A DNA stretch of 55,273 bases, from contig NZ_CALXRM010000014.1 of assembly GCF_944390845.1 (NCBI RefSeq), forward strand, positions 1-55,273, written 5' to 3'. A model generated the notes under the pieces. That model did not search any database and had not been told where the DNA came from. It saw nothing but the letters and a program-made list of their open reading frames with translations. Position numbers and translations under genes: made by a program. Source of the stretch: an uncultured Brachyspira sp. (GTDB lineage: Bacteria; Spirochaetota; Brachyspiria; Brachyspirales; Brachyspiraceae). Shown here in pieces: positions 2,586 through 34,045 of the stretch. Position 1 is the first letter of the stretch, and each line of letters begins with the position of its first letter.

Positions 2586-2902
2586 TTAAGTTTGTCAATT
2601 TTTTGTTGTTCTTTTTCCCGCCGCGTACGCTCTGCGGACTTCGTCAAAGAACCAAAAAGTGCAAATATAAAATTAGTATTAAATTATACTAATTATGTTT
2701 TACATGTAAGATAAATTACTAAATTTAAGTCAAAATGCAGCCTTTCGCGAAGCGTATCCGAGCCTGTCGAGGATATAGGTTCTTTGTGGCACGCCAAAGG
2801 CACTCCTTTCAGTAGCAAAAGAAGTGGGGGTGGGGGCAAAGCCCCAGATATAAAAACAAAAATATAAATTTATTTTTGACAAAATATAATTGTTTAGGTA
2901 TA
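2572..2902 (+). repeat. Dispersed element A, copy 2
   Basis: This 331-bp copy has both ends intact. The left end begins TATACTGAAAATTTTTAAG and continues TTTGTCAA. The right end is TTGACAAAATATAATTG then TTTAGGTATA. Read inward, the two 27-base ends match at 19 positions, including the outer five and inner eight. Inside are a GGGGCAAAGCCCC hairpin at 2833-2845 and a GCGAAGCGTATCCGAGCCTG block shared with copy 3. This accounts for nearly all of the gene-free stretch 2551-2968. Confidence 0.75.
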
Positions 2903-21283: not shown

Positions 21284-21644
21284 TTCACCGCACGCAGAAT
21301 AATATTATAAACATATACTGAAAATTTTTAAGTTTGTCAATTGATGCACTTTATATAGATATTATCTACTTTTTTGCCGCACAAAAAAGTAGCAAAAAAC
21401 GCAATTGCTAGAACTTTATATTTTAAGAATATGTATTAAATATGGTATAAACCCTAGTTTTAGGTCAAAAATGCAGTTGTTTTGGTTCTTTTATACCAAT
21501 AAAAGAACTGGGGTATGGGGCAAAGCCCCAGATATAAAAACAAAAATATAAATTTATTTTTGACAAAATATAATTGTTTAGGTATATATTAATTAATTAT
21601 CAAAATTATAATAATAAAAAATAATGCATTAACCGTGCGTTAAA
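21284..21644. repeat. Element B, copy 1, interrupted by element A
   Basis: The left end TTCACCGCACGCAGAAT (21284-21300) and right end CATTAACCGTGCGTTAA (about 21627-21643) match the ends of an uninterrupted 92-bp copy at 33942-34033. Here they are 361 bp apart because element A copy 4 (273 bp) lies between them. Removing it leaves about 88 bp. The ends share an inverted CGCACG core. Confidence 0.7.
21314..21586 (+). repeat. Dispersed element A, copy 4 (nested in element B)
   Basis: The most compact complete copy, 273 bp. It has left end TATACTGAAAATTTTTAAG..., the AACGCAATTGCTAGAACTTT block, a GTTCTTTTA/TAAAAGAAC hairpin near 21487-21508, the GGGGCAAAGCCCC hairpin at 21517-21529 and right end TTGACAAAATATAATTG...GGTATA. 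Both junctions are TA-rich (ACATA before, TATATT after), compatible with insertion at a TA dinucleotide. Confidence 0.75.
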
Positions 21645-22594
21645 GAATTTTTTTAATCTATAAAAAACTAGGGTGGGTGTTATATTGAGAAAAATAAATT
21701 GAAAAGAATAATAATATTTAAATTGAAAAATTATATTATAAAATTTATAGGGTGGGGTATGTTAATAAAGTGCTATTTTTATATTTTTTTATTTATAAAA
21801 GTTTTGAAATATTTTTTATTGTTTTAGGAAGAATTATTTTTTATATAATAAAGTTTTAAATAATTGTCATTTATAATTAAAATATATATAAACTTATTTA
21901 TAATTTTACTGCATACAAAAATTGATATTGTTAATATTTAATTATATTAAAAAAATAGTTTAAGTATAATTTTTATAATTTGTTTAACATGTTTCTAATA
22001 AAGTTTTTATAAAATATAATCATAACCTTATAAAAATAATTTAAATAAAGCTGCTTTTTAATTAAATGATAAATAGAGTTTGTTAATTTCTTTTTTAATT
22101 TACATCATTAGAATATAATTTGTAAATTAGAAATAGTCTTAAATCATACTAATTTTCTATCTTTTATATTATTCTGAAATATGTTTTCTATACAAAATAT
22201 TTTTAAGAATAATATAATTTTCAGTCATTAATACATTCTAAAAGTAAAATATAAATTTATTTTTATAAGTAGAAGTTATGTGTCAATTTTTAATTCTGCA
22301 GTAGAAGTTCATTAATTTAATATTAAAAATATAAGTTAAAATTATATATAATTAGTTTTTAAATTCTTAATTTATTAGCATAACATCTTAGTGAAATATA
22401 AAAAAAATATTATATGTTTATAGAAATTGTACTATTAGAAATTAAAAAATTGTTTTTTTATTTATTTTTTTGATTAATTTTGGCATTATTATAATGCTTA
22501 AATAATTGTCTTTTTTGGTTAAAAAATATATATTATACTACATATAATACTAAATTGGTATGAATAAGTACTAATTTAGTGTTTTCTTTATAAA
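21645..22594. other. Gene-free, extremely AT-rich stretch
   Basis: About 950 bases with no ORF worth reporting on either strand. The only departures from A/T runs are two G-rich clusters, GGGTGGG at 21671-21677 and GGGTGGGG at 21750-21757. No tRNA, small-RNA fold or recognisable coding remnant could be made out. Confidence 0.5.
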
Positions 22595-25816: not shown

Positions 25817-28808
<2,992 letters not shown>

Positions 28809-28917
28809 ATTATCGTTTTCTTCTTGAAAATAATAATAGAAAGTAGAATGAGACATCTACGCTCTTATATATCTGGCAAAGAGATTAAAAATTGTTCTTT
28901 TAATTTGCTAATATTAT

Positions 28918-29033
28918 TTCGGTGACCATAGAGAAAGTGATACACCCGTTCCCATTCCGAACACGGCAGTTAAGCCTTTCATCGTCGATGGTACTGTAAG
29001 GGTAGCTTTACGGGAGAGTAGAACGTTGCCGGG
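28918..29033 (+). rRNA. rrf: 5S ribosomal RNA
   Basis: A 116-nt 5S gene with the conserved CCCGTTCCCATTCCGAACACGG block and a terminal helix pairing CGGTGAC with GTTGCCG. It lies about 110 bases after 23S and outside the long helix bracketing 23S. No 16S gene is upstream; the unlinked 16S arrangement is known in Brachyspira. Confidence 0.95.
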
Positions 29034-29050
29034 TATATATTATATATTTA

Positions 29051-30338: not shown

Positions 30339-31073
30339 ATGGCAAATCCTGTTTTATCAGATAAGGCATTTAATTATGCATCAAATTATGAAAATGAAAA
30401 CACAATGACTGTTAATGGGGCAATTAACAAGTCAATAATACTTACATTAGTATTAATGCTTTCTGCTATGGTAAGTGTATTTTTTGTTTTAGCTTCTAAT
30501 CCAGGACTTCTTTATCCTGCTGCTTTAGGTTCATCTATAGCTGCTTTTGTTTTAGCTTTGATAATGACTTTCAAAAAAGAATTATCTAAAGTATTTTCTA
30601 TACTTTATGCTATACTTGAAGGTGTTGCTATAGGTGCTGTTTCTTATGTTTTTAATGCTGCTTATGACGGTATAGTTGTGCAGGCTGTATTTCTTACATT
30701 TTTAGATTTATTTATAATGTTGGTATTATATAGATTTAGAATAATAAGAGTAACTGAGAAATTTAGAAGTGTAATAACTGTATCTACATTGTGTATAGGT
30801 CTTGTATATTTAGTTAATTTTATAATGTCATTCTTTGGTGCTAGAATTCCTTTCTTATATGGTTCAAGTCCTTTAAGCATTGGAATAAGCGTTGTAGTAG
30901 TTCTTATTGCTTCATTTAATTTACTTTTGGATTTTGACTTTATGGAGAAAGGTGAGCAGTATAATATGCCTAAATATTTTGAATGGTATGCTGCTTTCGG
31001 ACTTCTTGTTACTTTAGTATGGCTTTATTTAGAGATATTAAAGCTCTTATCTAAAATAAGAAGCAGAGATTAA
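30339..31073 (+). CDS. Bax inhibitor-1/YccA family membrane protein
   Basis: A 244-residue protein with a hydrophilic start (MANPVLSDKAFNYASNYENENTMTVNGAINKS) and seven membrane helices. Family traits are the 'TVNGAINKSIIL' start of helix 1, ILEGVAIGAVSYVF, and LDFDFMEKGEQYNMPKYFEWYAAFGLLVTLVWLYLEILKLLSK near the C-terminus, with the Asp residues that act as a pH/Ca2+ sensor in bacterial homologues. Bacterial members such as BsYetJ conduct calcium, and YccA modulates FtsH. The cytoplasmic-membrane location is secure; the activity here is inferred from family. Confidence 0.9.
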   Translation: MANPVLSDKAFNYASNYENENTMTVNGAINKSIILTLVLMLSAMVSVFFVLASNPGLLYPAALGSSIAAFVLALIMTFKKELSKVFSILYAILEGVAIGAVSYVFNAAYDGIVVQAVFLTFLDLFIMLVLYRFRIIRVTEKFRSVITVSTLCIGLVYLVNFIMSFFGARIPFLYGSSPLSIGISVVVVLIASFNLLLDFDFMEKGEQYNMPKYFEWYAAFGLLVTLVWLYLEILKLLSKIRSRD

Positions 31074-31095: not shown

Positions 31096-31130
31096 TAAAG
31101 GCATGCATATTGATTTATGTATGCCTTTTT
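31096..31130 (+). terminator. Terminator after the BI-1/YccA gene
   Basis: AAAGGCATGCATA and TGTATGCCTTTTT form a stem with one irregular position and a T-run, 23 bases after the stop codon. Confidence 0.85.
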
Positions 31131-31153: not shown

Positions 31154-31170
31154 GGGGTGGGTGGGCGGGG
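31154..31170 (+). other. Four-tract G-quadruplex motif
   Basis: GGGGTGGGTGGGCGGGG gives four G-tracts of at least three bases with single-base loops, the most stable class of intramolecular G-quadruplex sequence. It lies between the BI-1 terminator and the 3' end of the convergent gene at 31226. Confidence 0.85.
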
Positions 31171-31225: not shown

Positions 31226-32410
31226 TTAATTAAACATATCTGTAAGTCTAAAATCCCATGCTATAAATATTAATAAATTGTATATAAATCTTTTTGAAAC
31301 TTCTTTGTTTTCATTATTTTTAAATTCTATATTTATTTTAATTTTATCCTTATAATCAGCATAATCAGTTTCACCGTTAATTTTTGCTTTTATTATAAAA
31401 GTATCTCCATTATCAAGTGTTAAACTATATTCTTTAATTGTTCTATATTCTGTATATAAAGGAAACATTCCATATCTTGTTCCGAATGCTTTGAAAGTAC
31501 CGTAAGCAATTTCTATATTTTGAAGTTTATCTATTTCATTTTTCAAATTATTTTTATCAATATTTATTATGCTTAATTGATTTATAGTCTGAGACAGTTC
31601 ATAATCTTGTAATTGTTGCCTCCATTTTCTAATTGTTTCTTCTTCCATTTCAATAGGGCTTGCTAAACTAATAAAACTACTATTATCAATTTTTACTTCT
31701 TCATCATTACTATTTGTATAGCTTCCATCGCCTGAATATCTGAATGTAGTTATAAAATTGTTATTCTTGTCATACAAATTCCATATAAGAGACAAGTCAA
31801 ATTTATTCATTATTGGGTTATCAATAAATACCTCTTTGAAAAAATCATAATCGTATTTATCTCCTGCAATGAGTAATTTATTTAATATATACGAGAATTT
31901 TTTTATCATATTGGAAACTTGTTCTCTTATATTTTTTATATTTTGTTTTTTATTTTCATCTAAATTTCTTGGAATAGATTTTAATATTTTATTTTCTTTT
32001 ATATCGAATATACTTACAGAATAATCATTGTTCAATATTAATTTATAATTTTCATCAAGGATTTTTTCACTGTTTTTGTCAAATCCAATATTTGAATTAT
32101 ATTTTAATTCTAAATTGTAAAAAGGAATTTTTTTATCTTTTGCAATTTCTATTAATATGTCTAAAGCGTTATTTTTTGATGCCATTTTTTTGGCATTATT
32201 ATATATATTAAATAGTATTTTTATAGTATATTCATTTTCTTTATTTAAAGATAGTATATTAAAAAATAATTTTGATTCGCCGTCTTTTTTGTATATTTCC
32301 TCTAATGCTTCATAGCCTCCATATAATCCGTAAATTAATTGTGCTGTTTCTTTATTAGTTTCTCTGTAAATATTTTCAGCAAAGCTTAAAAAACTTTCTT
32401 TATCAAGCAA
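31226..32410 (-). CDS. Unknown protein, probably the C-terminal part of the DUF285 gene
   Basis: A 394-residue reading frame with no signal peptide and many Asn/Lys/Ile residues. EMEEETIRKWRQQLQDYELSQTINQLS (about residues 248-275) weakly recalls DUF4132 proteins, which often pair with repeat domains. The only start is a TTG at 32408-32410 with no ribosome-binding site. It overlaps the end of the upstream DUF285 frame by 8 bp in the +1 frame. Dropping one base from the A4/T4 run at 32409-32412 would fuse the two frames into one protein of about 780 residues reading EIDSIINLLDKESFLSF. I therefore think this is the C-terminal half of a frameshifted gene, though coupled reinitiation is possible. 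Confidence 0.65.
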   Translation of the reverse strand: MLDKESFLSFAENIYRETNKETAQLIYGLYGGYEALEEIYKKDGESKLFFNILSLNKENEYTIKILFNIYNNAKKMASKNNALDILIEIAKDKKIPFYNLELKYNSNIGFDKNSEKILDENYKLILNNDYSVSIFDIKENKILKSIPRNLDENKKQNIKNIREQVSNMIKKFSYILNKLLIAGDKYDYDFFKEVFIDNPIMNKFDLSLIWNLYDKNNNFITTFRYSGDGSYTNSNDEEVKIDNSSFISLASPIEMEEETIRKWRQQLQDYELSQTINQLSIINIDKNNLKNEIDKLQNIEIAYGTFKAFGTRYGMFPLYTEYRTIKEYSLTLDNGDTFIIKAKINGETDYADYKDKIKINIEFKNNENKEVSKRFIYNLLIFIAWDFRLTDMFN

Positions 32411-33563
32411 AATTTATAATAGAATCAATTTCAACAATACGATAAATATACTTCTTTAATTCTAAATATTTTAAATATATGTATTTTATTACATTTATAT
32501 TAACTTCTCTTGATTTATCTTTTATTAATACATTAGCTTCTTTTATAAAATCGACTTTCTTTTCATCTTTTTTATTTAAATTATTTTCAGCATAATTTTC
32601 TGCTTCTTCTATACTTTTAAAAATTTGGCAATCCGATAAATCTTTTAATTCATCATAATAAATATTTTCTAATCTCCTTTTGAAAGCTATTATTTTTTTA
32701 TTTTTACTTTCGGAAGCTATTTTATGAGCTTCTTTCAAATTGTCTTTTATAATATCATTACTGTAATAATAATTATCTAATACATGTAAATATAAAGTCC
32801 ATTTCAAATTTTTAAAATTTTGAAAGTTATTACAGAATTGAAAAATATTTTCCATAGAATTAACTTGACTAATATCCCAGTTTTCTAAAGAACTGTACTG
32901 ATTAAAATTATAAGTACCGCCAAACATGTAACTCATATTTTTTACTTTTGAAGTATTCCATTTATCGAGAGGCTGATTAAACTTTGAAGCAAGATAAAAC
33001 ATATATGATGTATCTTTAACATTTGATATATCCCAATCATTTAAAGGCTGATTGAACTCAAAAGATTGTGCAAACATACAATACATGTTTTCAACATTGG
33101 ATACATTCCAACTATTAAGCGGGTGATTAAATTTACTGCATCCTTCAAACATACAAGTCATATCTTTAACACTCTCAACATTCCAAGATGAAATATCCTG
33201 ATTAAATTCCATAGCATCATTAAACATATAATTCATAATTTTTACTTTATGAACATTCCAATTATTAATAGGCTGATTGAATTTAATTGCATACCTAAAC
33301 ATATAGCCCATATCTTCTACATTAGATACATTCCAGTTATTTATATTATGATTAAATTTACGTGCAAAAGAAAACATTGAGTTCATACTTACAACATTTG
33401 AAGTATCCCAAGTTTCTATACCTGAAAAATCTTCTCTTTCGCTTCCTGAAAATAATCCGCTCATATCTTTAATAAGGCTTGTATCTATATCGCCTAAATA
33501 AATGCTTTCATCTTGTACTATTTCGTATAATTCTTTTAAAATTTCTGGTTTGTATTTATGCAT
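32403..33563 (-). CDS. DUF285 / BspA-type repeat protein
   Basis: A 386-residue protein whose first 220 residues hold eight repeats of 24-26 residues of the DUF285 (BspA-type, leucine-rich-like) pattern, for example NWNVSNVEDMGYMFRYAIKFNQPI and SWNVESVKDMTCMFEGCSKFNHPL. Such repeats form solenoids for protein contact. There is no signal peptide or lipobox, unlike the surface-exposed members of other genera. After residue 240 comes a helical Lys-rich region that runs straight into the next frame. See the frameshift argument in the entry for 31226-32410. Confidence 0.8.
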   Translation of the reverse strand: MHKYKPEILKELYEIVQDESIYLGDIDTSLIKDMSGLFSGSEREDFSGIETWDTSNVVSMNSMFSFARKFNHNINNWNVSNVEDMGYMFRYAIKFNQPINNWNVHKVKIMNYMFNDAMEFNQDISSWNVESVKDMTCMFEGCSKFNHPLNSWNVSNVENMYCMFAQSFEFNQPLNDWDISNVKDTSYMFYLASKFNQPLDKWNTSKVKNMSYMFGGTYNFNQYSSLENWDISQVNSMENIFQFCNNFQNFKNLKWTLYLHVLDNYYYSNDIIKDNLKEAHKIASESKNKKIIAFKRRLENIYYDELKDLSDCQIFKSIEEAENYAENNLNKKDEKKVDFIKEANVLIKDKSREVNINVIKYIYLKYLELKKYIYRIVEIDSIINFA

Positions 33564-34045
33564 ATATTTATCCGTAAGTTTGATCTATAATAGTATAGTA
33601 TATTTATTTAAGAATTTCTATTAACTAAATATTATTTGCTATTCAAATAAATTAATGATGAATTATATATTTTTATTATATGATTTTATAAATGCTTCAA
33701 AACCTTATTTTTTATAATAAAATATATAATACAAAAAAGAACTAAAATATTTTTATTTAATATTTGATCAACTTTTAATTTTGTATATTAAATAATTTTT
33801 TATATTTAAGTTTAAAAAAATTATTCTAAATCCCGCCCTCTATCCTTATAAATATATTTTTTGTTTTAAGTATTTTGTTTCTTTAAAAAATTATCAAGAA
33901 ATATAAACACCCACCCAAGATTTTTCTAAATTTGCTGCTTATTCACCGCACGCAGAATGAAATTATATTATTTGAGTTAATTATAATTCTAATTTTTTTA
34001 TTATTGAAAATAAATCATTAACCGTGCGTTAAAAAGATTGCATTT
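33564..34045. other. Gene-free stretch holding element B copy 2
   Basis: AT-rich spacer between the DUF285 gene start and the 3' end of the LacI-type regulator. It contains CCCGCCC at 33832-33838, CCCACCC at 33910-33916 and element B at 33942-34033. No ORF, tRNA or convincing promoter for other genes was seen. Confidence 0.5.
33942..34033. repeat. Element B, copy 2 (uninterrupted)
   Basis: 92 bp from TTCACCGCACGCAGAAT to CATTAACCGTGCGTTAA, matching the ends of the copy at 21284-21644. The ends are imperfect inverted repeats sharing CGCACG and an ATGA/TCAT pair. It sits a few bases from the stop of the LacI-family gene, so it might also act as a weak terminator-like hairpin. Confidence 0.65.

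What the first reader, a model, noticed from the sequence alone, without database searches (positions are those of the whole stretch)
31154..31170. G-quadruplex motif in very AT-rich DNA
GGGGTGGGTGGGCGGGG is four G-tracts with one-base loops, very unlikely by chance at this base composition. Shorter relatives occur at 21671, 21750, 33832 (as C-tracts) and 33910 (as C-tracts), all intergenic and mostly near gene ends. They may be a genome-wide structural or termination signal.
Basis: partly seen in the sequence, partly recalled or inferred. Interest (0 to 1): 0.6.

Follow-up and report, generated by a model that had tools for sequence, protein, structure and literature searches.

The report
Brachyspira dispersed intergenic G-tract repeats
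The guanine-rich sequence is real and is one of about ten copies per genome of a motif found only in Brachyspira gut spirochaetes; it belongs with a roughly 200-copy family of guanine-tagged intergenic repeats that sit where genes have been inserted or reshuffled, so it looks like a DNA-level landmark of genome rearrangement rather than a transcription terminator.

Summary
GGGGTGGGTGGGCGGGG at 31154-31170 is real and not chance: about 0.001 four-tract sites are expected per genome and 10 exist. A flanked form occurs 38 times in 16 of 26 Brachyspira genomes and never in 221 other Spirochaetota. The "shorter relatives" at 21671/21750 and 33832/33910 are the paired ends of a second repeat, CTTGGGYGGG-N~70-TAAAGGGYGGG, with 204 exact copies in this genome. 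A scan of 84,980 species listed only Brachyspira. These boxes alternate in orientation around inverted CGCACG/CGTGCG arms 66-70 bp apart. Both kinds are intergenic. Boxes show no preference relative to gene direction, and an ordinary terminator lies just upstream of the motif, so a termination role is not supported. Box-bearing gaps hold 4-8 times more synteny breakpoints than box-free gaps. Four-tract sites sit at core/accessory seams (BI-1, CDF loci), and one subclass lies beside vsp and hsdS genes. At an orthologous locus the G-tracts differ 1.5% pairwise, loops 18%, flanks 13%. Best reading: a Brachyspira-specific mosaic repeat, BIME-like but without RAYT, serving as recombination junctions. 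G4 folding and any recombinase are unproven; the link between four-tract sites and boxes is suggestive only.

The parts
31154..31170 (+). Four-tract motif GGGGTGGGTGGGCGGGG (class A site: TTTA-GGGGTGGGTGGGCGGGG-TGAATAGATTAATAAA)
   Evidence: one of 10 in the genome
31097..31128 (+). Intrinsic terminator of the BI-1 gene, separate from the motif
   Evidence: 13-pair stem, T tail; conserved in relatives with and without the motif
30339..31073 (+). Bax-inhibitor-1-like gene: core neighbour of the motif
   Evidence: PF12811 E=6e-75; found in 21 of 26 genus genomes
31226..32410 (-). DUF4132 gene: accessory neighbour; motif lies between it and BI-1 in G000 and G002 only
   Evidence: PF13569; synteny
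32403..33563 (-). DUF285 (BspA-like) gene of the same accessory pair
   Evidence: PF03382
33832..33916 (-). GGGYGGG box: CCCGCCC (33832-33838) ... CCCACCC (33910-33916), spacing 78
33947..34028 (-). Inverted arms CGCACG (33947-33952) and CGTGCG (34023-34028), loop 70, upstream of this box
21671..21756 (+). GGGYGGG box: GGGTGGG (21671-21677) ... GGGTGGG (21750-21756), spacing 79
21634..21639 (+). Single arm CGTGCG upstream of the 21671 box; inverted partner absent (half element)

Best explanation
The motif is one copy of a Brachyspira-specific set of dispersed, strictly intergenic, G-tract DNA repeats. Two forms exist. The first is a short four-tract site, YYC-looped, about 10 per genome, to which this finding belongs. 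The second is a mosaic element of about 200 copies per genome, built from GGGYGGG boxes about 77 bp apart, arranged head-to-head around CGCACG/CGTGCG arms and tail-to-tail. Shown: identity, copy number, fixed spacings, genus restriction, intergenic placement, G-tracts better conserved than the sequence around them, and association of the boxes with synteny breakpoints and of the four-tract site with core/accessory gene seams at some loci. Inferred: they act as DNA, not RNA. The G-tracts are maintained because a protein reads them and/or because they fold (G4) in single-stranded DNA, and the repeats are substrates at which blocks of genes are recombined, inserted and inverted, by homologous recombination between copies or by an unidentified recombinase. 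Also inferred, and weaker: that the four-tract sites and the boxes are one family.
For: Genus-wide four-tract census; 0 of 221 non-Brachyspira Spirochaetota carry the flanked form. Box pattern: 204 copies here, 25-187 in 22 other genomes; all 80 loci listed from a scan of 84,980 species are Brachyspira. Fixed spacing: 76-79 in most copies; arm loop 65-71 in 284 of 289. An HMM with G-tracts masked finds 257 copies, 204 with both G pairs intact. CDF locus, sampled by the neighbouring gene and so without selecting for the motif: G-tracts 1.5% pairwise difference, loops 18%, flanks 13%; one decayed G in 132, although the accessory gene beside it is broken in several species. Breakpoints between two species at 91% identity: 14 of 23 box-bearing gaps versus 33 of 173 and 31 of 185 box-free gaps, OR 6.6 and 7.7, P 6e-5 and 1.5e-5; gaps of 300 bp or more still OR about 4. 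BI-1 locus: G010 has BI-1-[boxes]-c6 while G018 has BI-1-[boxes]-two accessory genes-[boxes]-c6. At the AGE-epimerase locus G009 carries an 853-aa gene between two copies of the terminator plus four-tract site, where G004 and G017 have a single site and no such gene.
Against: No recombinase or target-site duplication was identified. Breakpoint enrichment was shown for boxes, not for four-tract sites, in one species pair and part of the chromosome; with a length-weighted intergenic control it is weak. Two four-tract loci (phage-tube-like gene, OMP-M20 peptidase) keep both neighbours across species, so not every site is a seam. The G009 duplication covers about 150 bp, so the G-tracts may be passengers. 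The kinship of the two forms rests on shared GGGY syntax, absence of three-tract forms and weak flank similarity (AUC 0.70); arms are absent next to most four-tract sites. The CDF-locus permutation test is P=0.07. Some boxes have decayed at orthologous sites.
Confidence: 0.5

Rival explanations
1. A non-autonomous mobile repeat (MITE-like). The G-tracts and CGTGCG arms are recognition ends for an unknown transposase; rearrangement is a by-product and there is no cellular function.
For: Lineage-specific bursts (G010/G015 share a subfamily of similar interiors), tandem copies about 345 bp apart, genus-wide but patchy copy number 0-204, decayed copies.
Against: No target-site duplication or autonomous partner found; Y1_Tnp is absent. 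G-tracts stay intact at the one four-tract orthologous locus sampled without selecting for it.
Confidence: 0.3
2. Binding sites for a chromosome-organising or regulatory protein. Fixed spacings (74, 77-78, 43, 146 bp) reflect a looped or wrapped nucleoprotein complex, and G-quadruplex folding is irrelevant.
For: Spacing is conserved while interiors are not. Arms are invariant with no compensatory changes, and flanking positions pair less than expected, so a hairpin is not what is selected. Loops are restricted: third loop C in 37 of 39, first two mostly pyrimidine.
Against: Copy number varies from 0 to 204 between congeneric species, and copies amplify and are lost, unusual for a housekeeping site.
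Confidence: 0.25
3. RNA-level element: transcription terminator or 3'-UTR G-quadruplex.
For: Intergenic; the reported site follows a gene end.
Against: A separate terminator sits upstream. Orientation to genes is random for boxes. In the window the motif would be C-rich in the DUF4132 transcript. No Rfam match in a locus with eight boxes.
Confidence: 0.04
4. Chance G-run or compositional artefact.
For: None beyond its short length.
Against: 0.0008 expected versus 10; 0 of 100 shuffles; absent from 221 other genomes.
Confidence: 0.01

Closest known systems
REP / BIME (bacterial interspersed mosaic elements) with RAYT transposases
   Same: More than 100 intergenic copies, alternating orientation, composite arrays, genome-specific amplification (features as described in PMC2817692).
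   Different: No Y1/RAYT transposase in the genome; unit about 215-345 bp rather than 20-40 bp palindromes; defined by paired GGGYGGG boxes 76-79 bp apart and 6-bp arms 66-70 bp apart.
Neisseria pilE G-quadruplex (recombination-initiating G4)
   Same: Short-loop G3 quadruplex motif; one subclass (class B) lies between tandem vsp surface-protein genes or next to hsdS.
   Different: Many dispersed sites rather than one locus; no evidence of gene conversion or of the associated small RNA (described for pilE in PMC3547852); loop pattern YYC.
MITEs / composite MITE-bounded gene insertions
   Same: Short non-coding repeats, lineage-specific bursts, accessory genes found between copies.
   Different: Terminal inverted repeats with target-site duplication and a cognate transposase were not found.
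Quadruplex-forming repeats of Xanthomonas and Nostoc (PMC4692102)
   Same: Genus-enriched, G-rich, quadruplex-competent repeats.
   Different: Those are described as simple sequence repeats with short units; here the sites are dispersed, part of a larger spaced architecture, and carry conserved flanks.

Membership tests
G-quadruplex motif (G3+ N1-7 x4) | Four runs of at least 3 G with 1-7 nt loops | tested here: met
   GGGG-T-GGG-T-GGG-C-GGGG
G-quadruplex motif (G3+ N1-7 x4) | Folds into a G4 in vitro or in vivo | not testable with these tools
   Only an RNA G4 energy model, -39.6 kcal/mol
REP/BIME | High-copy intergenic repeats in alternating orientation | tested here: met
   Boxes: 204 copies, ++43-- and --146++ arrays
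REP/BIME | Associated RAYT (Y1) transposase | tested here: not met
   PF01797 absent from the genome; positive controls ring
REP/BIME | 20-40 bp palindromic unit | tested here: not met
   Arms of 6 bp with 66-70 bp loop; next positions pair less than chance
MITE | Terminal inverted repeats plus target-site duplication | tested here: inconclusive
   One three-species alignment showed a deletion, not an empty site
MITE | Cognate autonomous transposase | tested here: inconclusive
   Only Y1 and PDDEXK_2 were sought; PDDEXK_2 has 18 copies above cut-off, of which only C4 is flanked by mapped boxes
pilE-type recombination G4 | Located at an antigenic-variation locus | tested here: inconclusive
   Class B sites lie beside PF05540 vsp genes in three species; the reported site does not
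pilE-type recombination G4 | Required for recombination at that locus | not testable with these tools
   Needs mutants
Intrinsic terminator | GC stem-loop followed by a U tract | tested here: not met
   The motif has neither; the terminator is separate at 31097-31128
Integron attC array | attC sites with an integron integrase | not tested
   Integrase families were not searched
Known structured RNA | Rfam match | tested here: not met
   Only rRNA and tRNA matches in the window, only tRNA in L110 with eight boxes

The most novel reading that the evidence does not exclude
Brachyspira carries its own recombination system in which dispersed G-tract sites (GGGYGGG pairs and YYC-looped four-tract sites) are read by a dedicated recombinase or G4-processing pathway. 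The system inserts, excises and inverts accessory-gene blocks genome-wide and drives variation at vsp and hsdS loci: an integron-like or pilE-like mechanism distributed over the whole chromosome.
Probability: 0.12. Interest if true: 0.9.

Novelty: new variant of a known kind. Interest (0 to 1): 0.55.

Why it matters
Brachyspira genomes are known to be extensively rearranged between species (PMC2897892); the passages found in the two Brachyspira papers consulted name no interspersed repeat as a cause. A repeat of about 200 copies per genome with rigid architecture and breakpoint association offers a testable cause. The four-tract subclass beside variable surface protein and type I restriction specificity genes makes a DNA-structure role in antigenic and phase variation directly testable. 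No paper in the searched open-access library mentions Brachyspira together with G-quadruplexes.

Tried and rejected
RNA-hairpin idea for the CGCACG/CGTGCG arms: no covariation, and flanking positions pair below chance. RAYT/REPIN: no Y1 transposase. PDDEXK_2 (Rpn-like) nucleases as partners: only one of eight copies on contigs with mapped boxes is flanked by boxes. Four-tract sites as simple deletions of the box interior: arms upstream only at L038 and near L054/L057; flank similarity weak. Phage origin: no box in IMG/VR; two 39-40% GC phage-like contigs carry the four-tract form by themselves. An apparent strand bias in G004 was a listing artefact of the tool. A length-weighted intergenic control made breakpoint enrichment weak; a gap-based control restored it, so both are reported. 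Coding potential of the boxes: interiors carry in-frame stops and lengths are not multiples of three (read).

Full report
OBSERVATION. The 17-mer GGGGTGGGTGGGCGGGG is at 31154-31170. It is the only four-tract G3N1 motif in the window, against none in 100 shuffles. In the whole genome (G000, 3.43 Mb, 27% GC in a 435-kb sample) there are 10, against 0.0008 expected from a first-order Markov chain. Three-tract forms are missing except inside the four-tract sites and two GGGGGGGTGGG, while two-tract GGGYGGG occurs 490 times.

WHAT THE SHORTER RELATIVES ARE. The listing of GGGYGGG sites shows that they come in direct pairs 76-80 bp apart. The consensus box is aaaCTTGGGYGGG-N~70(A-rich)-TAAAGGGYGGG. 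It has 204 exact copies here and 25-187 in 22 other genomes of the genus, and none in three. Boxes face away from one another across these arms (-- 146 ++) or face one another tail to tail (++ 43 --), giving alternating mosaics and tandem copies about 345 bp apart. An HMM with the G-tracts masked still finds 257 copies, of which 204 have both G pairs intact.

TWO CLASSES OF FOUR-TRACT SITE. After collapsing near-identical flanks there are 29 class A sites (TTa-GGGGYGGGYGGGCGGG-[G/C]TGAATAAATTAA), including this one, and 10 class B sites (upstream ...TTTGTTTAACTWTAAA). Loops are restricted: the third is C in 37 of 39 and the first two are mostly pyrimidine. The flanked class A form has 38 matches in 16 of 26 Brachyspira genomes and none in 221 other Spirochaetota; the backward control gives one match in all 247 genomes. 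Whether four-tract sites and boxes are one family is not settled. Shared GGGY syntax, absence of three-tract forms and weak flank similarity (AUC 0.70) favour it; the general absence of the arms next to four-tract sites does not.

PLACEMENT. 252 of 261 box copies are outside predicted ORFs; the other nine overlap ORFs of only 75-94 aa. Convergent gaps are enriched (84 of 215 placed copies versus 47 of 390 background gaps), and orientation relative to co-directional genes is 43:42. All but one of the 36 four-tract sites first examined are intergenic. At the reported site a standard terminator (31097-31128) lies about 25 bp upstream of the motif and is conserved in species without the motif. A termination role is therefore not supported.

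CONSERVATION. At the CDF-transporter locus, sampled by the neighbouring gene and so not selected for the motif, 12 genomes have the site or its remnant between the CDF gene and an accessory gene or a rearranged region. In 11 aligned genomes the G-tracts differ by 1.5% pairwise, the loops by 18% and the flanks by 13%; one tract has decayed in G006 (permutation P 0.07 because the tract is short). The accessory gene beside it is fragmented in several of these species while the tract stays intact. In G005 the homology ends inside the tract. At the BI-1 locus the site is present only in G000 and G002, the two genomes where DUF4132 directly follows; other species have no decayed remnant, and four have the arm-plus-box element instead. 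Boxes upstream of gene c6 keep both G pairs in several of ten species and are decayed in others, so individual copies are dispensable.

REARRANGEMENT. G010 and G015, 91% identical at the median, have shuffled 1-17-kb blocks in the sampled regions. Fourteen of 23 box-bearing intergenic gaps contain a breakpoint in each genome, against 33 of 173 and 31 of 185 box-free gaps (OR 6.6 and 7.7, P 6e-5 and 1.5e-5). In gaps of at least 300 bp the OR is about 4 (P 0.014 and 0.007). A control that weights intergenic positions by length gives only weak enrichment, partly because the boxes themselves make up much intergenic sequence. Examples: G010 has BI-1-[boxes]-c6 where G018 has BI-1-[boxes]-two genes-[boxes]-c6. 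G009 has an extra 853-aa gene between two copies of a roughly 150-bp segment that contains the terminator and the four-tract site, where G004 and G017 have one copy and no such gene. The published comparison of three Brachyspira species reports extensive genome rearrangement (PMC2897892).

CLASS B NEIGHBOURS. Class B sites lie between or after vsp genes (PF05540) in G004, G005 and G006, and next to hsdS (PF01420) in G000, G002 and G020 (Pfam was run on one vsp and one hsdS protein, the others were assigned by their similar N-termini). This recalls the pilE G4, but nothing here tests gene conversion.

MECHANISM. Shown: identity, genus restriction, spacing, placement, conservation pattern and breakpoint association of the boxes. 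Inferred: action at DNA level, recognition or folding of G-tracts, and use as recombination junctions. Loop restriction and the lack of arm covariation favour sequence recognition as at least part of the constraint; G4 folding has not been measured. No recombinase has been found: Y1 is absent and PDDEXK_2 copies are not generally adjacent.

VERDICT. The larger object is a Brachyspira-specific dispersed repeat system that resembles BIMEs in layout but fails the RAYT and palindrome criteria.

Noticed in passing
window 2826-2836 and 21510-21520 with following sequence: A different repeat, GGGG..TGGGGGCAAAGCCCCAGATATAAAAACAAAA, forming a GC hairpin, occurs twice in the window and again in variant form near the 19542 box of L098 and downstream of BI-1 in G006.
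   Followed up: no
BI-1 downstream region in L142, L144, L145, L148, L149: Another dispersed AT-rich repeat, CAAACGCTTCAAAnnnTTGTTATTGnAnnGA, appears in several species at this gene end.
   Followed up: no
L406 4832-5250 (G000 C72): About 400-bp tandem duplication, each copy with a class B four-tract site, between hsdM and hsdS of a type I restriction-modification locus.
   Followed up: partly
L090 5943-6420: A 30-kb IMG/VR contig (40% GC, not Brachyspira-like) carries several copies of TTGGGGCGGGTGGGCGGGGA close together, downstream of a large ORF.
   Followed up: partly
L373, L376, L380: Class B four-tract sites lie between or after tandem vsp (PF05540) genes in three species.
   Followed up: partly
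G000 C4:23807-25056: A PDDEXK_2 nuclease-family gene is flanked on both sides by boxes pointing toward it; 17 other copies above cut-off exist in the genome.
   Followed up: yes
L295, L298, L301 downstream of the CDF gene: The accessory gene after the CDF transporter (no Pfam match) is broken into fragments in several species while the adjacent G-tract mostly remains intact.
   Followed up: partly
G010 C1:1406573-1406777 and 1751912-1752116: Two near-identical box pairs in mirrored order, suggesting a recent inverted duplication or exchange.
   Followed up: no
window 25817-29034: 23S and 5S rRNA genes without an adjacent 16S gene in the window.
   Followed up: no
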